A stretch of DNA of 43,210 bases from Dehalococcoidia bacterium (GTDB lineage Bacteria > Chloroflexota > Dehalococcoidia > Lucifugimonadales > UBA3495), in NCBI GenBank assembly GCA_022825745.1, contig JAJDWF010000146.1, positions 1 through 43,210 of the forward strand, read 5' to 3'. Within the stretch, counting starts at the first letter, position 1; the number at the start of each line of letters is the position of its first letter. A model generated the notes under the pieces. The model was not told the DNA's origin and ran no database searches. It worked only from the letters and a program-made list of their open reading frames with translations. Below are positions 23,251-42,515 of the stretch, one piece after another. The translations under genes were made by a program, and so were the position numbers.

Positions 23251-26200
23251 ATGACTACCACACTCAACGATACCGCAGATAGCGTAGCCGCCTCGTTGCG
23301 CGAGGGGATGCGGCACATCTCCAGCCGGGGGCAACTGGTCAACGAAGCGTCCACTCTGTCGCTGCTGATACAGCCGACGCTCAATGCGCTGGGCTATCCG
23401 GCGACGCACCGGATACCGGAGTACGGCGAGCAGCGGAACCGCCTTGACGAAGCCTGCTTCCTCAACGTGGTCAATTCCAGCCCCGGCCACGCCGCCGTTA
23501 TCGTCGAGGCCAAAGAATACGGTACGGACTTTGACAAATCCGTGGGACGCTTCGGCTCCCCTGACCGTCAGATACAGCGTTATCTCAAGCAGCACGCCGC
23601 CAGTGGGCCGAATACGATCGGCGTGCTCACCGATGGAGCCAAATGGCGCATCTACCGACGTGCCGGGAACGCGGCTAATCCCGACGTTGAGTTTCTGGTT
23701 GAGTACGACTTCCAGACGCTAACACAGCCGGAACAATCTGCTCTGGTAGATTTCGCCCCAGACGTGCAGGTGTGGCTACGAGATTTAGTTGACCGACTGG
23801 CCCGCACCAGCATCGATTCTCGTACCATCCCTAGCCGCCGCCCGGCGCAAGTCAATCCGGCCGACGGTCTTTTTGCCGCTATCGCCGAAAACTTGCAGCC
23901 CGACTACATTTTGCGCCAATTGTTGGATGAACCACAGGTGATGGCGCAAACCAACCTGGCCGATGAGGTCGTTCTGCAAGGCATCCGCAAGGATGTGCAT
24001 GATAACGATTGGGAAACCTACGCCTACAGTCCCGCGATTCCCTTGCAGTCCGACAATCCAACGCTGACCGGCAACCGCGCCGTTATTGCCGCCGTACAGT
24101 ATCGCCATGACCCTGCCCTGGGCCTGAGTCGCCCTGACGTTGCTCTTTGCGCTCGAACCTTCGCCAGCGCCAGCGACTCCGCCGCCGCCGTCGTTATGGC
24201 CTACTCCGCCGCGCCTGACGACAGTATCGAGGCCCGCTTGGCCGTGGCCGCTGGCGGCCAAGTCAATATGACTGCGGCTTTTGACCCCACCTTGCCTGCC
24301 CCGTCGGCCCGGACCGCCATCGGACAACTATTGCCGCTGCTCCACGACCCGGGTGATGGTGTGGCTGCCGACAAACTGCTGTCCCCGCTGGAAGCCGCGC
24401 CGCTGCGTCAGCGATTCTACCGTGAAGTCGCCCAATGGACGGGCCGGATGCAAAAGGACAAAGACCGGCCGCAGCGGCAGGCCATTCTCCGCCACCTGGT
24501 GCGCGTGATGTTCGCCTGGATTCTCAAAGAGGAAAACGTCATCCCGCCGGAACTCTTTGAACGCGCCTTCGTCAGCGCCCACTTGGACGACGCCGGGCGT
24601 TACCATGCCGACGTGCTGCGGTTCCTCTTTCACCAGCGTCTCAACGTGCCCCATCCGGTGCGTTCCGCCCACGCCGTCGCCGCCGTACAGGACGCCATGG
24701 AGCAGACGCCGTTTCTCAACGGGTCACTGTTCGCCGAGCATAGCGACGATGATGAGCTGGACATCGCGCCGGCGGATTACTGGAGCGCCGACGAAAATGA
24801 ACCCGGCCTGTTCACCATCCTTTCCCGTTATCACTGGACAATGGACGAACACCGGCCCGGCGAAAGCGAGCAGACCCTTGACCCGGAACTGTTGAGCAAC
24901 CTCTTTGAGCGGCTGATCACCCCCACCGAGGAAGGCACCGAGCCGCCGCTACGCCAGCCCCAAGGCACGTACTACACGCCGGCGGACGTGGCCGACGAAA
25001 TGGTGAAAGACGCCCTGGCCGCCGCCGTGCGGGATTACGCGCCGGACAACGTCAGCGATGCGGAACTTCTGGACCTGTTCGGCAGCGCCGACGCGCCGCT
25101 GCCGGCAATGACGCCGACGCAGCGGGTACGGTTGACCCGGCGCATCAAGGAATTGCGGATTTTCGACCCCGCCGTCGGCTCCGGCGAATTTCTGTTCAGT
25201 ATGCTGTTGGCGTTGCAGCGCGCCTTGGGCAAGCTGGAACCCGACGCCGCCAATCCCGCCGAGGACATCATCAAACGCCAACTGGCCGGCCAGGACATTC
25301 ACCCGCTGGCGGTACAAATCGCACGGCTGCGGCTCTTTATCGCCATCACCGCCGCCCGCCGAAACGAGCCTACGGATGAGCCGCTCCCCAACTTAGAGGC
25401 GCGCATTGTATGTGCCGACACGTTGGAAACTGTCGCCAACTCGGATTGGCGCCCCGACCGTCCCGGCCAGTTTGACACCGCAGACCCCGAACTCATCGCC
25501 GCCCTCACCGCAGTCGGCGAGAATCGGGCCAACTGGTTCGGCGCCCACACCGAGGACGACAAACAGGCGGTGTTGAAACAGGACAAGGACTTACGCGCCA
25601 ACCTCTCTCAGATGTTGAAGCAGAAAGGCGAACTGGTCAGCCCTGAGTTGGTACACTTCGCCGAGTCGCCACTCTATAACATCAACCCTACGCCGGCGCG
25701 CACCGACGCCAGGCTCCTGTTCTATGAAAACCCCTGGCGCGGTTTTGACATCGTTATCGGCAACCCGCCCTACGAAGCGCTGTCCAAGTCCATGGACCGA
25801 GATAGAGTAAACGCGCTGAAAACGGACAAAGGGTATCAGACCACCAACGTGGGCGACCTGTACTCGCTGTTCTGCGAAACGGCGCTGGCGTTGGCAAAAC
25901 CCGCCGGAGGTGTTGTTACGGTGATTGTCCCGCTCTCCATATCATTTGGAGTCCGGCAACGGTCGCTGAGGGCGGTGTTTGAAAGCCGATGCCGTGAAAT
26001 CAATTTACGGCAATACAATAACAACCCTAGTATGATGTTTCATACTACGCCTACGACGCTAGACCCGCGGAACCGACAGCGAGTAACCATCGCTGCCGCG
26101 ATTACAGGTAACTTTGAGCGTGTAATCAGGTCAACGGGACTACAAAGGTGGCCGTCTGACGAACGCGACTTGTGCCTACAGCAGCGCGAAACCGCCCGCT

Positions 26201-26808
26201 TGCCCCAATTCGGAGCTAGTATCCCCCAGCACGTCACTAGGCAATGGCCGCGCATCCCAACGCAAGAATTGGCGGATATGGTTGAGAGGATCGTTGCGCA
26301 AAAGAAAGCCGTTGGGAGTTACAACGGAGCTGGTGGCCTGAATGCAGCTATTCAAGTAGCGGCGGAATACTTCATCAGTACAATCCCAGCGGGTAGCGTA
26401 TCGCCAAGAACGGAGCAATTGCTGGCAGTGCCTAGTGGTGACGACTTGCGCCTGCTAATGGCGGCGCTCAACGGTCACGTCGCCTATGCGTGGTGGTGGA
26501 TGTATGGTGACGGGTTCCACGTGAAATCCAGTGATTTTGCCGCGCTAACCATTCCGGACACTTGGGTTGAAAATCCGCAACCTGCAATAGACATAGGCCA
26601 ACGTCTTATTGACGCCATGCCAGAGTGCCAAGTGGAGATAACCATACACAGGAAAGTCTGGCGCAACGTGAACTTCCATCTCAAGCCGGACTTGATAGCG
26701 GAGCTGGACCGGATGCATATAGCAGCGTTAGGGCTGCCAGAGGAACCGCTGCTGACGCGCCTGCGCATCATGCGTTCCAACTGCTATTGGAACTATCCTG
26801 CCGCGTAG
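23251..26808 (+). CDS. type IIG restriction-modification enzyme (Eco57I-like nuclease-methyltransferase fusion)
   Basis: A single 1185-residue protein appears to hold both activities. The N-terminal third has a PD-(D/E)XK nuclease motif (RLDEACF, then AAVIVEAKEYGTDF near residues 84-97, with a downstream Gln-rich helix). The methyltransferase core starts with motif I FDPAVGSGEFLFSML near residue 637 and has catalytic motif IV IGNPPYEAL near 835, the NPPY pointing to N6-adenine methylation. The last 250 residues would be target recognition; there base composition falls and codon use is less biased than in neighbours, consistent with transfer. No separate specificity, BREX or DISARM gene is adjacent. 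PglX-like proteins of similar length are the main alternative, but the N-terminal nuclease argues for type IIG. Confidence 0.85.
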   Translation: MTTTLNDTADSVAASLREGMRHISSRGQLVNEASTLSLLIQPTLNALGYPATHRIPEYGEQRNRLDEACFLNVVNSSPGHAAVIVEAKEYGTDFDKSVGRFGSPDRQIQRYLKQHAASGPNTIGVLTDGAKWRIYRRAGNAANPDVEFLVEYDFQTLTQPEQSALVDFAPDVQVWLRDLVDRLARTSIDSRTIPSRRPAQVNPADGLFAAIAENLQPDYILRQLLDEPQVMAQTNLADEVVLQGIRKDVHDNDWETYAYSPAIPLQSDNPTLTGNRAVIAAVQYRHDPALGLSRPDVALCARTFASASDSAAAVVMAYSAAPDDSIEARLAVAAGGQVNMTAAFDPTLPAPSARTAIGQLLPLLHDPGDGVAADKLLSPLEAAPLRQRFYREVAQWTGRMQKDKDRPQRQAILRHLVRVMFAWILKEENVIPPELFERAFVSAHLDDAGRYHADVLRFLFHQRLNVPHPVRSAHAVAAVQDAMEQTPFLNGSLFAEHSDDDELDIAPADYWSADENEPGLFTILSRYHWTMDEHRPGESEQTLDPELLSNLFERLITPTEEGTEPPLRQPQGTYYTPADVADEMVKDALAAAVRDYAPDNVSDAELLDLFGSADAPLPAMTPTQRVRLTRRIKELRIFDPAVGSGEFLFSMLLALQRALGKLEPDAANPAEDIIKRQLAGQDIHPLAVQIARLRLFIAITAARRNEPTDEPLPNLEARIVCADTLETVANSDWRPDRPGQFDTADPELIAALTAVGENRANWFGAHTEDDKQAVLKQDKDLRANLSQMLKQKGELVSPELVHFAESPLYNINPTPARTDARLLFYENPWRGFDIVIGNPPYEALSKSMDRDRVNALKTDKGYQTTNVGDLYSLFCETALALAKPAGGVVTVIVPLSISFGVRQRSLRAVFESRCREINLRQYNNNPSMMFHTTPTTLDPRNRQRVTIAAAITGNFERVIRSTGLQRWPSDERDLCLQQRETARLPQFGASIPQHVTRQWPRIPTQELADMVERIVAQKKAVGSYNGAGGLNAAIQVAAEYFISTIPAGSVSPRTEQLLAVPSGDDLRLLMAALNGHVAYAWWWMYGDGFHVKSSDFAALTIPDTWVENPQPAIDIGQRLIDAMPECQVEITIHRKVWRNVNFHLKPDLIAELDRMHIAALGLPEEPLLTRLRIMRSNCYWNYPAA

Positions 26809-26849: not shown

Positions 26850-27130
26850 AATGACACTCTCCCCTTGCCTAAACCCGCCGCCCATCCGTACCATTTAACT
26901 ATCCAACCGCCTAGATCCATCCCGCCGCCCAACTCCAACCCGCGGTCGAATGCCCTACTCGAAACGCCGCTCCCCCAAATCCTTTCGCCGGCCCGCCAAA
27001 ACCGCCTATATCGCCACCAAAACCCGCCCAATCCGCCCCCATTTACCCCCGTATCTCGCCCCAACTCCCTACTCAAATGATAGGAAATGAGCGGAAATAA
27101 GCGGGATTTTGCCAAAATCGCCACCATCCC
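26850..27130 (+). repeat. C/A-rich dispersed element with 10-bp iterons, copy A
   Basis: The 442-base gap between the type IIG gene and the Uma2 gene holds no gene but one copy of a repeated element, also at 34388 and (reversed) at 42235. It opens with TGACACTCTCCCCTTGCCTA, contains CATCCGTACCATTTAAC, is nearly free of G on this strand, and ends in three tandem 10-mers at 27075-27104 (AAATGATAGG, AAATGAGCGG, AAATAAGCGG) then GATTTTGCCAAAAT. C-runs at 27023-27050 give a four-run G-quadruplex motif on the other strand. Confidence 0.8.
27075..27104 (+). repeat. three 10-bp direct repeats closing copy A
   Basis: AAATGATAGG, AAATGAGCGG and AAATAAGCGG stand head to tail with exact 10-bp period, one turn of DNA helix. 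The same block ends the other two copies of the element. Confidence 0.85.
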
Positions 27131-27250
27131 ACCTTACTCCCATGAAAGCCCCTGGTGTGATGGAATCGCCCTTCGCCCCGGCGCGTATGTTTGCCGTCAG
27201 GTATAATTCCGCCATACCTGTCCGCGCCGTCCCGCAGCAAGGAGAGCGCC

Positions 27251-27991
27251 ATGACCACCGCTAACATTTACGTCAAGACGCCGCCGGATCCGGGCCGTTT
27301 CCGACTGCCCGACATCCCACAGCGAGGGCCAGATGAAGTGACCAGCCACAAGCAGCTTACCCACACTGGCCATGCCCACCACTTGGCCGTCCATCTGGGC
27401 AATCCCGAAACCACGCTGGTGACCGCCGACCGTTGGATCATCGCCGCGCCGAGCACCTTTCGGGAACTGGCCCGCTATCCTGACCTGCTGGTGGCCTTTG
27501 ACGTGAACCCGGCGGCCTACGAAGCCAGCAACGGGTACATCATCTCGGAACAAGGCAAGCCGCCGGACTTCGTGCTGGAGGTAGCGTCGGAAAGCACGGG
27601 GAGCCTGGACGTAGGGGCGAAACGGAACGACTACGCCAGGTTGGGGATACTGGAATACTGGCGGTTTGACGAGACGGGGCAGTATCACGGGGCGCGGCTG
27701 GCTGGAGACAGATTGGCGGATGGCGTGTACGTACCGATCCAGATCGACCAGCTGCCGGACGACGTGTTGCAGGGGTACAGCCGGGCGTTGAACGTGTTGT
27801 TGCGTTGGGAGAACGGCGCGCTGGGGTGGCACGACCCGGCGACGCAAGATCACATCGCCACGTTTGAGAGTGAGCGGGCGGCGCGGATGCTGGAGCGCGA
27901 GGCACGGATTCGGGTGGAGGCTGAGCGCAATGCAGCAGCAGCCCGCGTGCGTGAGCTGGAAGCGCAGCTGCAACGGCTGCGCGACGACTGA
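27251..27991 (+). CDS. Uma2-family (DUF820) nuclease-like protein, copy 2
   Basis: This is a close relative of the protein at 11581-12279: both have a long polar N-terminus, then YPDLLVAF (D78), KPPDFVLEVAS (D106, E110), a Lys in GAKRNDYARL (K124), LEYWRFD, and a C-terminal coiled coil (ERAARMLEREARIRVEAE and so on) longer here than in copy 1. The motifs of the PD-(D/E)XK fold are intact. The role of Uma2 proteins is unproven. A promoter TATAAT at 27202-27207 and an AGGAGAG site before the ATG support the start. Confidence 0.88.
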   Translation: MTTANIYVKTPPDPGRFRLPDIPQRGPDEVTSHKQLTHTGHAHHLAVHLGNPETTLVTADRWIIAAPSTFRELARYPDLLVAFDVNPAAYEASNGYIISEQGKPPDFVLEVASESTGSLDVGAKRNDYARLGILEYWRFDETGQYHGARLAGDRLADGVYVPIQIDQLPDDVLQGYSRALNVLLRWENGALGWHDPATQDHIATFESERAARMLEREARIRVEAERNAAAARVRELEAQLQRLRDD

Positions 27992-30454: not shown

Positions 30455-32065
30455 ATGCCCACCATGACCGGCGGCCAGGCCCTGATGCGTTCGTTGTACT
30501 ACGAAGGCGTGCGCGTGATTTTCGGACTCCCCGGCGTGCAGCTTTACCACGCCCTCGACGCCCTCAACGACGTCCCCGGCATCCGGTTCATCACCACTCG
30601 CCACGAGCAGGCCACCACCTACATGGCCGACGGCTACGCCCGCGCCAGCGGCGAGATCGGCACGGCCTTCATGGTGCCCGGACCCGGCCTGCTCAACGCC
30701 TCCGCCGGCCTCAGCACTGCCTACTCCGCCTCGTCGCCCGTCCTGGTCGTCTGCGGCCAGATTGAGCGCGACCTGATCGGCGTGGACCGGGGCATGCTCC
30801 ACGAGGTCAACGACCAGCAGGACACCATCCGGCCCGTCACCAAGTACGTGCGCCGCATCATGACCACCGAGGAGGCCCCCGAGGCCGTCCACGAGGCGTT
30901 CCGCCAGCTCAAGACCGGCCGGCCCCGTCCTGTGGAGGTCGAAATGCCGCCGGAGACCATGGCCGACCCGGGCGAGGTCACGCTGATCGAAGCCGAGGGT
31001 TACGCCCGGCCCGCCGCGCCCGACGAGCAGGTGGCCGAGGCCGCCCGCATCCTGGCCGGCGCGCAGCGTCCGCTGATCTGGGCCGGCGGCGGCGTCATTT
31101 CATCCGAGGGTTCACAGCCGCTGGTGCGCCTGGCCGAGCGGTTGCAGGCTCCGGTCATCACCACCGCCGAGGGCAAGGGCGCCATCGACGACCGCCACCC
31201 GCTGGCCTTGGGCGCGCTGCGCCTGCGCAACGACCCGGTGGCGAAGAGCGAGCCCAACTTCGACGTGATCCTGGCCGTCGGCACCCGCCTGGCCTTCCCC
31301 GCCTGGCTGGGTGGACAGCGCGTCGTCCAGATCGACATCGACCCCGAGGAACTGGGCCGCAACTATGAGAACACCTACGGCGTGCAGGGCGACGCCCGCA
31401 CCGTCATGGAGCAGGTGGACGCCAGGCTGGCCGAGTCCATCGCGCCTGGATCCCGCCCGTCCATGGCCGACGAGGTGGTGGCCCTGCGCAAGCGCCGGCG
31501 GGACACTGCGCTGACGCCTGAACCCCAGGAGTCGCTGCTGGCCGCCGTCCGTTCCGCGTCGCCGGACGACACCATCCTGGTGTCCGGTATGACCCAGCTG
31601 GGCTACTACGCCCGCGCCTTCTGGCCCACCTACGAGCCGCGCACCTTCATCACGTCCAGCTACTCCGGCAACCTGGGCTACGCCTGGCCCACCGCGCTGG
31701 GCGCCAAGGTGGCCCAGCCCGACCGGCCGGTGGTGGCGCTGTGCGGCGACGGCGGGTTCCTGTTCAACTCGCAGGAACTGGCCACGGCGGTGCAGCACGG
31801 CATCAACGCCATCGCGGTGGTGTTCAACGACAACGCCTACGGCAACGTCCTGCGCGACCAGGTCAACCGCTTCGACGGTCGCGTCGTCGGCGCCGAACTG
31901 CACAACCCCGACTTCGTAAAACTGGCCGAAGCCTACGGGGTCAAAGGCGTCCGAGCCGAAGGCCCCGAAGCGTTGGAGTCAGCGCTGAAGGACGCGATTG
32001 CCGCCGACGCGCCGGCGCTGATCGAAGTGCCGGTAAGCATGATGCCGACGCCGTTTGAGGTGTAA
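30455..32065 (+). CDS. thiamine diphosphate-dependent enzyme, acetolactate synthase/benzoylformate decarboxylase family
   Basis: The 536-residue protein has the three ThDP-enzyme domains. The Pyr domain holds the catalytic Glu51 in TTRHEQATTYMADGYARASG; the central domain reads PLIWAGGGVISSEG and IDIDPEELG; the PP domain has the cofactor motif CGDGGFLFNSQELATAV near 430-446 ending VFNDNAYG. Acetolactate synthase catalytic subunits are longer and usually sit beside ilvN, which is absent, so a 2-oxo-acid decarboxylase or carboligase is more likely. An AGGAAGG site lies before the ATG. Substrate not determined. Confidence 0.9.
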   Translation: MPTMTGGQALMRSLYYEGVRVIFGLPGVQLYHALDALNDVPGIRFITTRHEQATTYMADGYARASGEIGTAFMVPGPGLLNASAGLSTAYSASSPVLVVCGQIERDLIGVDRGMLHEVNDQQDTIRPVTKYVRRIMTTEEAPEAVHEAFRQLKTGRPRPVEVEMPPETMADPGEVTLIEAEGYARPAAPDEQVAEAARILAGAQRPLIWAGGGVISSEGSQPLVRLAERLQAPVITTAEGKGAIDDRHPLALGALRLRNDPVAKSEPNFDVILAVGTRLAFPAWLGGQRVVQIDIDPEELGRNYENTYGVQGDARTVMEQVDARLAESIAPGSRPSMADEVVALRKRRRDTALTPEPQESLLAAVRSASPDDTILVSGMTQLGYYARAFWPTYEPRTFITSSYSGNLGYAWPTALGAKVAQPDRPVVALCGDGGFLFNSQELATAVQHGINAIAVVFNDNAYGNVLRDQVNRFDGRVVGAELHNPDFVKLAEAYGVKGVRAEGPEALESALKDAIAADAPALIEVPVSMMPTPFEV

Positions 32066-32066
32066 T

Positions 32067-32108
32067 CATCCCCTCTTCTTCGATGGGAGAGGGTTAGGGT
32101 GAGGGTGA
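32067..32108. repeat. dispersed CCCTAACCCTCTCCC-type repeat
   Basis: The bases between the ThDP gene and the methyltransferase gene, CCCCTCTTCTTCGATGGGAG followed by AGGGTTAGGGTGAGGGTGAT, match a short repeat found between genes of many GC-rich bacteria. It marks the left edge of the restriction-modification cassette. Confidence 0.6.
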
Positions 32109-32123
32109 TCGCTAGGAGGTACG

Positions 32124-33434
32124 ATGCCAACGACTGTCGCCAGTCCTTCAAGCAATCAAAACCAGTTACTGCCGGACGACCGAGGCGTTCACGACTGGTA
32201 TCGCTTCGTCCTGTCCTTTCCGCCGCACTTGGTCAGAACGTACATCGAAAGGTTCGGCATTGATGAATCTCAGGTTGTCCTGGATCCTTTCTGCGGCGCG
32301 GGAACGACGCTGGTAGAGTCCAAGAAATCCGGTATCGCCAGCGTGGGGATGGATTCTCATCCGATGGCTTATTTCGCGAGTTCGGTCAAGGTTGACTGGT
32401 CAATGAGCGCTGATCGCGTACTGGCTTATGCCGGTCAGGTCGCTGAGTCTTTCAACGAGACCATGGCAGATGTGGAACAGAATGCGCTCATCCGCGATAG
32501 TGACACGCTCCAACATACCGATTCACTCATAGGACTCCTGGGCCCCGAAGAATCCAAGTTGCTTATAAAAGACTCAATCAGTCCCAAGCCGGTTCTGAAG
32601 ACATTAGCCTTGTTACACAAGATTAACGAACATGGGGACGCTAGCCTCCGCAACATCGGGCGGCTCGCCCTCGCCGGAGCGCTTGTGAATGGTGTGAGTA
32701 ATTTGAAATTCGGACCTGAGGTGGGTGTAGGACGAATTAGAGCTGACGCCCCTGTCTTGGAAACTTGGGGTGAACGCATTCAACGGATGGCCGACGACTT
32801 GCGGTTCGTCCATGACCGAACAGACATCCCGGCACGCGTCATCAAATTCGACGCCCGAAACATGGAGCAGGGGCTCGCGCCTGAATCTGTGGACGCAGTT
32901 ATCACTTCTCCGCCATACCCAAACGAAAAAGACTACACTAGGACCACTCGTTTGGAGTCGGTTTTGTTGGGCTTGATTACGAGCCGCAATGAACTGCGGC
33001 AAGTCAAACAGGACCTCCTGAGGTCAAACACCAGAGGGGTCTATAAAGACGATGCCGATGATCGATCTGTGGACGGCTTCCAAAGCATCGCCGAAATCTC
33101 CGACGCAATAGAACGCCGGCGTATCGAACTGGGCAAAACATCAGGGTTTGAACGGCTGTACGCCAGGGTAACCAGGTTGTATTTCGGCGGCATGTTCAGG
33201 CACCTCTCTTCTCTGAGAACTGTTCTGCGACCGGGCGCGAAACTGGCGTATGTCGTAGGAGATCAAGCATCGTTCCTGCGTATAATGATTCCCACAGGTC
33301 AGATAATAGCGGACATTGCTGAATCGTTAGGTTATCGTGTAATCGACATTGACCTCTTCCGCACCAGATTTTCCACCGCAACAGGTCAGCACTTGCGGGA
33401 AGAAGTTGTTGTGCTGGAATGGTCCAGCGATTAA
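32124..33434 (+). CDS. DNA methyltransferase of a type II restriction-modification pair
   Basis: The 436-residue protein has SAM-binding motif I VLDPFCGAGTTLVE at residues 52-65 and catalytic motif IV TSPPYPNEKDYTR near 262-274. SPPY points to N4-cytosine (or beta-type N6-adenine) methylation. The motif order I then IV, with about 200 residues between, fits a form in which target recognition lies in the middle. An AGGAGGT site precedes the ATG. The gene has lower GC and more mixed codons than its neighbours, and with the next gene forms a cassette between two dispersed repeats, which suggests transfer. Confidence 0.9.
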   Translation: MPTTVASPSSNQNQLLPDDRGVHDWYRFVLSFPPHLVRTYIERFGIDESQVVLDPFCGAGTTLVESKKSGIASVGMDSHPMAYFASSVKVDWSMSADRVLAYAGQVAESFNETMADVEQNALIRDSDTLQHTDSLIGLLGPEESKLLIKDSISPKPVLKTLALLHKINEHGDASLRNIGRLALAGALVNGVSNLKFGPEVGVGRIRADAPVLETWGERIQRMADDLRFVHDRTDIPARVIKFDARNMEQGLAPESVDAVITSPPYPNEKDYTRTTRLESVLLGLITSRNELRQVKQDLLRSNTRGVYKDDADDRSVDGFQSIAEISDAIERRRIELGKTSGFERLYARVTRLYFGGMFRHLSSLRTVLRPGAKLAYVVGDQASFLRIMIPTGQIIADIAESLGYRVIDIDLFRTRFSTATGQHLREEVVVLEWSSD

Positions 33435-33450
33435 CAAGAAGGCGTCTCAT

Positions 33451-34248
33451 ATGCGTGCACCGAACCGATATGAACAAATTTTGACCAAAGTTTTCTTCGA
33501 CCACTATGTGGAGGGTTCCCGACAGGTTGAATTTACCCGGCAGGACCTCATCGACGCTGCCGAAGAACTCGGCTTGGACCGTCCCCTCAACATCGGAGAC
33601 ATACCGTACAGTTTTCGACACAGAGGTTTGAGACCCGCTCAGATCATGGAAACCGCGCCCGATGGCGAAACATGGCTCTGGCGGAGCGGCGGAACCAGCA
33701 TCTACCGGCTCGTAATGGTTCCGGATAGACCTATCGCGCCGAATCAGAACCTGGCGGTTACCAAAATACCGGATGCTACCCCTGGGATTGTAGCGTGGCA
33801 TTCCCAAAGCGATGAGCAAGCGTTGTTGGCGCGCCTGCGCTACAACCGCCTGATTGACATCTTCTTGGGAATAACCTGCTATTCGCTGCAAAACCACTTG
33901 CGGACTACCGTTGAGGGCATCGGACAAATCGAAACGGACGAGATCTATGTGGGGATAGACAGGCGAGGATCGCAGTACGTCGTGCCGGTGCAAGCGAAAT
34001 CTGAAAACGACCAGATCGGACGAGTGCAAATCGAGCAGGATATTTCTTTGTGTGAGGAAAGGTGGACTGCGCTCATCTGCCGCCCGATAGCCGCTCAAAT
34101 GATGGGGAACGACACCATTGCCCTGTTCGAGTTTGAGCTACAGGCCGATGACGTTAAGATAGTGTCGGAAAGGCACTATCAACTCGTCGAACCGGAACAA
34201 ATGACGACAGAGGATTTGCAGTCGTATCGACAACGCTCATTGGACTGA
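33451..34248 (+). CDS. probable type II restriction endonuclease with PD-(D/E)XK-like site, 265 aa
   Basis: I recognise no named family, but the centre has a nuclease-like site: IETDEIYVGIDRRGSQYVVP then VQAKSENDQ, with D163/E164 and D170 ahead of Q181-x-K183, a QxK variant of the (D/E)XK motif. The N-terminal 90 residues look like a winged-helix DNA-binding region (RYEQILTKVFFDHYVEGSRQ and so on). It starts 16 bases after the methyltransferase stop with an AAGAAGG site, the usual layout of a type II pair. Composition is as AT-rich as its partner. The endonuclease call is inference from motif and partner; DNA specificity unknown. Confidence 0.75.
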   Translation: MRAPNRYEQILTKVFFDHYVEGSRQVEFTRQDLIDAAEELGLDRPLNIGDIPYSFRHRGLRPAQIMETAPDGETWLWRSGGTSIYRLVMVPDRPIAPNQNLAVTKIPDATPGIVAWHSQSDEQALLARLRYNRLIDIFLGITCYSLQNHLRTTVEGIGQIETDEIYVGIDRRGSQYVVPVQAKSENDQIGRVQIEQDISLCEERWTALICRPIAAQMMGNDTIALFEFELQADDVKIVSERHYQLVEPEQMTTEDLQSYRQRSLD

Positions 34249-34252
34249 TACC

Positions 34253-34387
34253 TCCTACCCATCCCCACAAAATCAATGTCGCCCAACTTTTTGTGAATCA
34301 CGTGCTTTTTGTGGCCAAAAGCCGCCCAATCGCCCCCCACAATCACCCATAATCCCCAAAACCCCCAGTTCAGACAACCTCCGCCCC
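34253..34387 (+). repeat. partial C-rich repeat segment before copy B
   Basis: This non-coding stretch resembles the 3' part of the dispersed element: CCGCCCAATCGCCCCCCACA matches CCGCCCAATCCGCCCCCATT in copy A. It may be the remnant of a second, truncated copy in tandem. C-runs at 34325-34366 give a G-quadruplex motif on the other strand. The unique start (GTCGCCCAACTTTTTGTGAA) shows nothing else. Confidence 0.5.
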
Positions 34388-34655
34388 GGTGACACTCCCC
34401 CCTTGCTCTAACCCCTCCCCCATCCGTACCATATTACCCAGCGCCCAAATCCAACCCGCCACTCAGGCCCGCGAGAGCCGTCCCAATGCCCACTTCCAAA
34501 CACCGCGAACCCCGCTCCCCCAAACCCGCTCACCTGCCCGCGAATACCGCTAAAACCGCCACCAAAACCCTTCCCTCGGCCCCCAAATCAGCCCCACGAC
34601 CCGCCTAATACCATACTTGAATTAGCGGAAATGAGAGGAAATGAGCGGGAAATCG
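34388..34655 (+). repeat. C/A-rich dispersed element with 10-bp iterons, copy B
   Basis: Begins GGTGACACTCCCCCCTTGCT, has CATCCGTACCATATTACC, CGCTCCCCCAAA and ACCGCCACCAAAACCC in the same order as copy A, and ends with three 10-mers at 34619-34648 (GAATTAGCGG, AAATGAGAGG, AAATGAGCGG). It fills the gap between the type II restriction-modification cassette and the propeller gene; no gene is seen in it. C-runs at 34568-34595 form the quadruplex motif. Confidence 0.78.
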
Positions 34656-34767
34656 ACCTTTCCGCTCGCCTGATTGTCCCTTGTGCTATCATGCCCACGG
34701 CGGCGGGCCTTATCGCCGTCCATCCGGCATTCCGCGTTACGCATTGCATCCATCGCAGGAGGTAATC

Positions 34768-42234: not shown

Positions 42235-42515
42235 ATGGTCTGAATGTGGGGATTTTGGCGAAATCCCGCTCATTTCCTCTCATTTGCGTTCATTTGAGTA
42301 GGACGTTGAGCGGGTGATGGGGGCGGAATGGGCGGGTTTTGGGGGCGATAATGGTGGTTTTGGCGGGCTATTGAGAGGGTTTGGGGGTGGTGGTTCGACA
42401 GGCTCACCATGAACGGAGGACGGGGTAATCGTGATGGACTTGGGCGATTGGATGGTTGAGTTAAATGGTACGGATGGATGGAGGTTAGGGGCAAGGGGGA
42501 AGTGTCACTGGATGG
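42235..42515 (-). repeat. C/A-rich dispersed element with 10-bp iterons, copy C (reversed)
   Basis: On the minus strand it reads GTGACACTTCCCCCTTGCCC, then CATCCGTACCATTTAACTCA, then a C/A-rich body and three 10-mers at 42266-42295 (complement of GCGTTCATTT, CCTCTCATTT and CCGCTCATTT), ending GATTTCGCCAAAAT as in copy A. A 25-base dispersed repeat (42392-42416) is inserted in the middle. G-runs at 42312-42345 form the quadruplex motif. The 502-base gap 42217-42718 has no other gene. Confidence 0.8.
42392..42416 (-). repeat. dispersed TTCGACAGGCTCA-type repeat
   Basis: GGTTCGACAGGCTCACCATG followed by AACGG is the partner of the repeat at 17044-17067, in the opposite direction, and lies inside element copy C. 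Confidence 0.65.

What the first reader, a model, noticed from the sequence alone, without database searches (positions are those of the whole stretch)
32124..34248. Type II restriction-modification cassette with an unfamiliar QxK nuclease
A SPPY methyltransferase is followed after 16 bases by a 265-aa protein with a D..QxK site and an N-terminal winged-helix-like region, which I cannot match to a known restriction family. Lower GC and flanking dispersed repeats on both sides suggest recent gain.
Basis: partly seen in the sequence, partly recalled or inferred. Interest (0 to 1): 0.5.

Follow-up and report, generated by a model that had tools for sequence, protein, structure and literature searches.

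The report
PvuI-like restriction-modification pair, newly gained
Two adjacent genes encode a bacterial DNA-cutting enzyme and its protective DNA-marking partner, most likely aimed at the sequence CGATCG like the laboratory enzyme PvuI; the family is already catalogued, so this is an ordinary find, though it sits in a spot where related bacteria carry other genes, some of them defence-like.

Summary
The cassette is real: a 436-aa SPPY methyltransferase (32124-33434), 16 bases, then a 265-aa nuclease (33451-34248), at 53% GC between flanks of 66-71%. The nuclease is not unfamiliar: PADLOC model PDLC03404, "Type II restriction enzyme", matches it end to end (E 2e-107), although Pfam and NCBIfam have nothing for it. 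A predicted structure (pLDDT 89) shows a winged-helix-like N-terminus and a PD-(D/E)XK core with E122/D163/Q181/K183. Best reading: a PvuI-type Type IIP system, probably cutting CGATCG. Proteus hauseri, carrying the same gene pair (50-53% identity), has 6 CGATCG sites against 199-348 in 19 congeners without the nuclease family; other relatives of the nuclease are paired with m5C methyltransferases similar to a cyanobacterial one. The specificity is not proven: CGATCG density in the window's own genus does not track the gene, and several other carriers are not depleted. The nuclease is absent from 13 of 13 congeners; in six of them the same site, between a TPP-enzyme and a BNR-repeat gene, holds other low-GC cargo, including a methyltransferase beside an AbiJ-like gene. 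New member of a known kind; low interest.

The parts
32124..33434 (+). DNA methyltransferase (436 aa), motif I-like DPFCGAGTT first, SPPY later; probably N4-cytosine; protective M of the pair
   Evidence: Pfam PF01555 1.9e-11 in two stretches; PADLOC MTase_II PDLC03224 2e-39; homologous M beside R in 38 of 44 GTDB loci
33451..34248 (+). Type II restriction endonuclease (265 aa), PDLC03404 family, PvuI-type, predicted CGATCG
   Evidence: alignment A1 of 38 sequences; AlphaFold2 model pLDDT 89.4
33451..33729 (+). N-terminal winged-helix-like domain (residues 1-93), presumed DNA-contacting
   Evidence: many winged-helix rows, but Z at most 5.6
33766..34188 (+). PD-(D/E)XK nuclease core (residues 106-246) with E122, D163/E164, Q181, K183
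   Evidence: EndoMS Z 8.1, NucS Z 7.8, BsaXI Z 7.4, Hje Z 7.3; conservation
34280..34665 (.). downstream dispersed repeat of the genus (core 34390-34665)
32066..32115 (.). short repeat-like sequence at the left junction
   Evidence: weak, near copies seen only in relatives L066 and L067
32065..34678 (.). variable segment: synteny with six congeners breaks at about 32055-32119 and resumes at about 34678-34757; they carry other cargo here

Best explanation
A two-gene Type IIP restriction-modification system of the PvuI type, gained horizontally. The SPPY methyltransferase marks a cytosine (probably m4C) in a palindromic site, most likely CGATCG; the nuclease, translated just downstream, is inferred to dimerise, to contact the site with its winged-helix and core domains, and to cut unmethylated DNA with a metal-dependent PD-(D/E)XK centre (E122, D163, Q181, K183) in which Q replaces the usual E/D. 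It would act as a defence against unmethylated incoming DNA. Shown here: the gene pair, its family, its fold class by prediction, its patchy distribution, and CGATCG depletion in one carrier of the family. Inferred: cleavage, the methylated base, this copy's specificity, dimerisation and defence.
For: PDLC03404 REase_II matched at positions 2-259 of 260, E 2.3e-107. Homologous M next to R in 38 of 44 GTDB loci; of the other 6, 2 have an m5C methyltransferase (L035, L037), 2 have under 100 bases upstream (L008, L021), 2 have no partner found and a broken or partial R (L043, L044). An m5C partner also in 4 of the 6 R-bearing plasmid loci examined (L046, L047, L074, L075; none found for L076, L077); the L047 m5C enzyme is 46% identical to that of a cyanobacterial plasmid, L078. 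Published: m5C CGATCG methyltransferases (DmtC, M.Ssp6803I, XorII group), and m4C CGATCG methyltransferases assigned from REBASE predictions, one of them said to have come with a CGATCG endonuclease (PMC4390886); RshI, a PvuI isoschizomer, comes from R. sphaeroides 2.4.1, which also makes an m5C CGATCG methyltransferase (PMC6256690; PMC8112702); m5C at the first C blocks PvuI (PMC6604393). Site avoidance: P. hauseri has 6 CGATCG against 199-348 in 19 congeners; of these 20 only P. hauseri has the family; in a 200-kb sample from one contig 0 observed against 9.5 expected, while CGATCA, CGATCC and CGATCT occur. Own genome: CGATCG 24 observed against 105.6 expected, rank 5 of 64 palindromes in a 389-kb sample. 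Fold: 14 of the top 15 rows are nucleases that I recall as PD-(D/E)XK; the other is of unknown function.
Against: In the window's genus CGATCG density does not track the gene: own 55/Mb, but G003 (about 39/Mb) and G007 (about 14/Mb) lack the family and are lower; the other 11 congeners are higher. Other carriers show no such depletion as P. hauseri: G089 862 and G111 962 sites, Stenomitos 23915, Lyngbya 25916, Cryobacterium 5337, L007 genome 536, L028 genome 320, L020 genome 208 (no matched non-carriers were counted for the last five); the cyanobacteria are probably HIP1-rich. A second enterobacterial carrier, G232, was not counted. GTCGAC is avoided more strongly in the own genome. In P. hauseri CTGCAG is also strongly avoided, so other systems act there too. 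The window R is only 53% identical to the P. hauseri R and is not its close neighbour in the tree; specificity can change at that distance. That the P. hauseri enzyme is PvuI itself rests on recall; its computed mass, 29.9 kDa, differs from the 27,950 Da I recall. No Foldseek match reached E 0.001.
Confidence: 0.8

Rival explanations
1. A Type IIP restriction-modification pair of the same family whose specificity has diverged from CGATCG (another palindrome, perhaps one with a GATC core).
For: At most 59% identity to any R found; full carriers G089 and G111 show no CGATCG depletion and are the window R's nearest rows in the tree; own-genus densities do not track the gene.
Against: The family is strongly conserved across very different hosts (mean column identity 65%); relatives pair with two unrelated methyltransferase classes, each with CGATCG members in print; CGATCG is strongly avoided in the own genome.
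Confidence: 0.15
2. A decayed or inactive remnant: M still works, R does not.
Against: The window R is full length and shares the 35 columns that are invariant over all 38 rows, itself included, together with Q181 and K183; both genes are open.
Confidence: 0.04
3. A methyltransferase beside an unrelated DNA-binding protein with no nuclease activity.
For: Pfam has no family for the second protein, NCBIfam only a weak hit far below its cut-off, and Foldseek has no E <= 0.001 match.
Against: PADLOC REase_II at 2e-107, the PD-(D/E)XK fold rows, conserved E122/D163/Q181/K183, and CGATCG depletion in a carrier.
Confidence: 0.01

Closest known systems
PvuI restriction-modification system (CGATCG); family PADLOC PDLC03404 REase_II
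   Same: Tandem M then R; M 50% and R 53% identical to the P. hauseri pair, whose genome avoids CGATCG
   Different: That the P. hauseri pair is PvuI is recalled, not tested; different host phylum; identity moderate
R homologs paired with m5C methyltransferases on small Enterobacteriaceae plasmids (e.g. pB1019, L047), in Cryobacterium, Sinorhizobium and a Gemmataceae MAG
   Same: R 44-52% identical to the window R
   Different: The partner is an m5C methyltransferase, not an SPPY enzyme
RshI / M.Rsp241I (R. sphaeroides 2.4.1) and M.XorII / DmtC / M.Ssp6803I
   Same: Published CGATCG specificity
   Different: Sequences not held here, so homology was not tested; their methyltransferases are m5C
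EndoMS/NucS, BsaXI nuclease domain, archaeal Holliday resolvases
   Same: Fold of the C-terminal domain
   Different: No sequence similarity found by phmmer; different substrates

Membership tests
Type II (IIP) restriction-modification system | Adjacent modification methyltransferase and restriction endonuclease genes | tested here: met
   SPPY-type pairing in 38 of 44 loci
Type II (IIP) restriction-modification system | Both enzymes act on one defined site; R cuts only unmodified DNA | not testable with these tools
   Needs cleavage and methylation assays
PADLOC PDLC03404 (REase_II) | Full-length profile match | tested here: met
   E 2.3e-107, profile 2-259 of 260; 0 of 14 control genomes ring
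PvuI type (CGATCG) | Sequence homology to the PvuI pair | tested here: inconclusive
   Homologous to the P. hauseri pair, but the deposited PvuI sequence is not held; that the two are the same is recall
PvuI type (CGATCG) | CGATCG as target | tested here: inconclusive
   Depletion in one carrier relative and in the own genome, but not in other carriers and not tracking the gene in the own genus
PD-(D/E)XK nuclease superfamily | Core fold | tested here: met
   Predicted model pLDDT 89.4; EndoMS 5gke_A Z 8.1, rmsd 4.0, 96 aligned; 2vld_A Z 7.8, rmsd 2.6, 88 aligned. Z is modest; the consistency of the rows is the argument
PD-(D/E)XK nuclease superfamily | Acidic residue(s) and K in the catalytic hairpin | tested here: met
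   E122, D163, E164 in 38 of 38; Q181 in 37 of 38 (E in one, L037); K183 in 37 of 38 (R in one, L024). The Q is a variant of E/D; catalysis not tested
Winged-helix N-terminal domain | Fold | tested here: inconclusive
   Many rows are winged-helix proteins (linker histone, Fur, MCM8, DpnI), but best Z is 5.6 (8h1t_K, rmsd 2.8, 66 aligned)
N4-cytosine methyltransferase | SPPY motif IV; m4C product | tested here: inconclusive
   SPPY present; that SPPY implies m4C is recalled; product not testable here

The most novel reading that the evidence does not exclude
One conserved CGATCG nuclease lineage (winged helix plus a NucS-like PD-(D/E)XK core with a Q in the catalytic motif, no solved relative found by sequence) has at least once changed methyltransferase class, between an SPPY (m4C-type) enzyme and an unrelated m5C enzyme, while keeping its target. 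The R tree asks for three changes of partner, but a single one is not ruled out. This would be a natural series for asking how a nuclease tolerates two different protective marks at one site.
Probability: 0.45. Interest if true: 0.4.

Novelty: new member of a known kind. Interest (0 to 1): 0.22.

Why it matters
It gives a family and a testable target (CGATCG) to an endonuclease that Pfam and NCBIfam do not recognise and that the plasmid records looked at call 'endonuclease' or 'hypothetical protein'. It also shows that the site is a cargo hotspot in a genus of an order that probably belongs to Dehalococcoidia. If the methyltransferase exchange is real, the family is a good system for studying how restriction enzymes tolerate different protective marks.

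Tried and rejected
Naming the nuclease from Pfam, NCBIfam or PDB sequence search gave no family. CGATCG counts in the window's own order as a specificity test did not separate carriers from non-carriers. Literature: no paper with 'PvuI', 'Proteus vulgaris' and 'methylase' up to 2012 is held; the listings showed no paper about the R.PvuI sequence, and most of those papers were not opened; one search was an input error. The S. meliloti methylome paper (PMC11711589, passages) lists CGATCG as m6A in some strains at 8.6% average frequency and does not mention strain KH46 (L075) in its main text, so it neither supports nor refutes an m5C partner. PMC6430315 (whole text) reports no CGATCG methylation in the DrdIII source strain. 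R. sphaeroides 2.4.1 records CP030272 and CP030273 are not held, so the link to RshI was not tested by sequence. No match in the phage collection. The idea that partner exchange happened several times is not shown: three changes on the tree, one not excluded, long branches among the m5C rows. A regular link between the right-hand repeat and defence genes: two of its copies in the window lie downstream of restriction genes, but the genes around the two copies outside the window (L080, L094) were not identified, so it is only noted.

Papers, what I saw: PMC6256690 and PMC6430315 whole text; PMC4390886 sections 11 and 16 plus passages; PMC6604393, PMC8112702 and PMC11711589 passages only; all others only search listings. 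PvuI biology (cloned pair, 27,950 Da, source Proteus now called P. hauseri), SPPY as an m4C sign, HIP1 richness of the two cyanobacterial carriers, and the superfamily names of PDB entries are recalled or inferred.

Full report
Observation. The window holds two ORFs on the + strand: 32124-33434 (436 aa) and 33451-34248 (265 aa), 16 bases apart. The first has DPFCGAGTT and, later, SPPY. Pfam matches it to N6_N4_Mtase (PF01555) in two stretches; the stretch shown puts the profile's C-terminal part first (residues 28-80 on profile 162-213 of 221). The second has no Pfam family and only a weak NCBIfam hit far below its cut-off, but PADLOC model PDLC03404, 'Type II restriction enzyme', matches residues 3-260 over profile positions 2-259 of 260 at E 2.3e-107. 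GC of the cassette is 0.531, against 0.66-0.71 in the nearest windows on either side.

Relatives. A GTDB scan gave 44 loci with relatives at 42-59% identity, and tblastn gave 65 plasmid records, mostly Klebsiella (39) and Salmonella (17), and no phage record. In the 44 loci the upstream partner is a homolog of the SPPY methyltransferase in 38 (some only partly held) and an m5C methyltransferase in 2 (L035, L037); 2 (L008, L021) have under 100 bases upstream, and 2 (L043, L044) have no partner found and a broken or partial R. Of six R-bearing plasmid loci examined, 4 have the m5C partner (L046, L047, L074, L075) and 2 have neither by this test (L076, L077). R is broken or partial in 6 of the 44. 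In the same-order genome G054 R is split in two frames while M is open. In a tree of 43 R sequences the window's nearest rows are G089 and G111 of the same order, without strong support; the six m5C-partnered rows need three changes of partner, but one is not ruled out.

Active site and fold. In 38 aligned R sequences E122, D163 and E164 are invariant; Q181 is kept in 37 (L037 has E) and K183 in 37 (L024 has R). AlphaFold2 on 32 sequences gave mean pLDDT 89.4. Foldseek gave no hit at E 0.001 or better, but the VIA second look places residues 106-246 on nucleases: EndoMS 5gke_A Z 8.1 (rmsd 4.0, 96 aligned), NucS 2vld_A Z 7.8 (rmsd 2.6, 88 aligned), BsaXI 8w2p_A Z 7.4 (rmsd 3.8, 125 aligned), Hje 1ob8_A Z 7.3 (rmsd 3.5, 99 aligned); the only top-15 row that is not a nuclease is a protein of unknown function (superfamily membership of these entries is recalled). 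These Z values are modest; the consistency of the list is the argument. The N-terminal 93 residues predicted alone (pLDDT 90.9) match many winged-helix proteins, best Z 5.6.

Target site. The loci include Proteus hauseri ATCC 700826 (L038), with M (49.9% identical) followed by R (53%). From recall, PvuI (CGATCG) comes from a strain of that species group. Independently of recall, the P. hauseri genome has 6 CGATCG sites, while 19 other genomes of its genus have 199-348 each; the reversed control pattern is 386 in P. hauseri and 244-427 in the others. Of these 20 genomes only P. hauseri carries the family. In a 200-kb sample, all from one contig, CGATCG is 0 against 9.5 expected from pentamers, while CGATCA, CGATCC and CGATCT occur 26.5, 18 and 24 times (both strands halved); CTGCAG is also strongly avoided there (9 against 38.1). 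A second line is the partner. The m5C partner in Klebsiella plasmids is 46% identical to a cyanobacterial plasmid enzyme (L078), and m5C CGATCG methyltransferases (DmtC, M.Ssp6803I, XorII group) are described in cyanobacteria and Xanthomonas, along with m4C CGATCG methyltransferases assigned from REBASE predictions, one said to have been brought by a CGATCG endonuclease (PMC4390886). I did not show that L078 itself belongs to that group. R. sphaeroides 2.4.1 makes RshI, a PvuI isoschizomer, and has an m5C CGATCG methyltransferase (PMC6256690; PMC8112702); its sequences are not held. PvuI is blocked by m5C at the first C and not by methylation of the A (PMC6604393, passages).

Results against this. 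In the window's genus CGATCG counts do not follow the gene: own 164 in 2.99 Mb; G003 128 in 3.3 Mb and G007 55 in 4.0 Mb without the family; the other 11 congeners 202-1150. Carriers G089 and G111 have 862 and 962 sites; of other carriers counted, the two cyanobacteria have 23915 and 25916, Cryobacterium 5337, and the genomes of L007, L028 and L020 536, 320 and 208, without matched non-carriers. The second enterobacterial carrier (G232) was not counted. In the own genome CGATCG is fifth of 64 palindromes by observed/expected (0.23), and GTCGAC is lower (0.08); the 20 stretches were chosen partly from contigs that had shown CGATCG hits. A recent gain would leave little time for avoidance, so these results do not exclude CGATCG, but the specificity of this copy stays an inference.

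Origin. R is absent from 13 of 13 congeners, and the best-scoring methyltransferase match in a congener is 29% identical. In six congeners both flanks lie within 5 kb of each other; synteny is lost at 32064 (G006), 32065 (G002), 32119 (G009) or 32055-32056 (G003, G007, G008) and resumes at 34678-34679 (G006, G009, G002), 34727 (G007) or 34757 (G003, G008). Each has 2.6-4.6 kb of other DNA there at GC 0.53-0.57. For the remaining 7 congeners the matches listed put the flanks on different contigs or, in G010, far apart. Ten of the larger ORFs of this cargo, not all, were scanned: G003 has a DNA methylase and an AbiJ_NTD3 protein (G007 shares the methylase stretch, 87.6% DNA identity), G009 a RelA/SpoT-domain protein and an NA37 protein, G002 a radical-SAM protein, G007 a DUF6731 protein; four ORFs (one each of G002, G003, G006, G008) matched nothing in either library. 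The site thus looks like a cargo hotspot in this genus, partly with defence-like genes. G054 C1 has the length of OY282441.1, 'uncultured Dehalococcoidia bacterium', so the window's order probably lies in Dehalococcoidia (inference).

Verdict. A Type II restriction-modification pair of the PvuI-like PDLC03404 family, recently gained; new member of a known kind. The points of interest are the two methyltransferase classes in the family, the Q in the active site and the hotspot.

Noticed in passing
window 23251-26808 (+): A second restriction gene: a 1185-aa Type IIG-like enzyme (PADLOC REase_MTase_IIG 9e-39, Pfam Eco57I 6e-17), GC 0.601.
   Followed up: partly
window 26852-27106, 34390-34665, 42264-42511: Copies of one dispersed repeat family (70-81% alike where aligned); two lie downstream of the two restriction loci; the query 34249-34700 has 21 further matched stretches in this genome.
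   Followed up: partly
L065-L070 (six congeners), between the TPP-enzyme and BNR-repeat genes: The same site holds different low-GC cargo, including a methylase plus AbiJ_NTD3 gene and a RelA/SpoT plus NA37 pair.
   Followed up: partly
window 27191-27991 (+): Uma2-family putative endonuclease (Pfam 7e-15; PADLOC PDC-S03 2e-12).
   Followed up: no
own genome sample L080-L099: GTCGAC is avoided even more than CGATCG (9 observed, 113 expected), which may point to another restriction system.
   Followed up: no
G003 and G007: Very low CGATCG (128 in 3.3 Mb; 55 in 4.0 Mb) without the PDLC03404 family; cause unknown; a search for close relatives of the plasmid m5C enzyme there found only distant ones.
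   Followed up: partly
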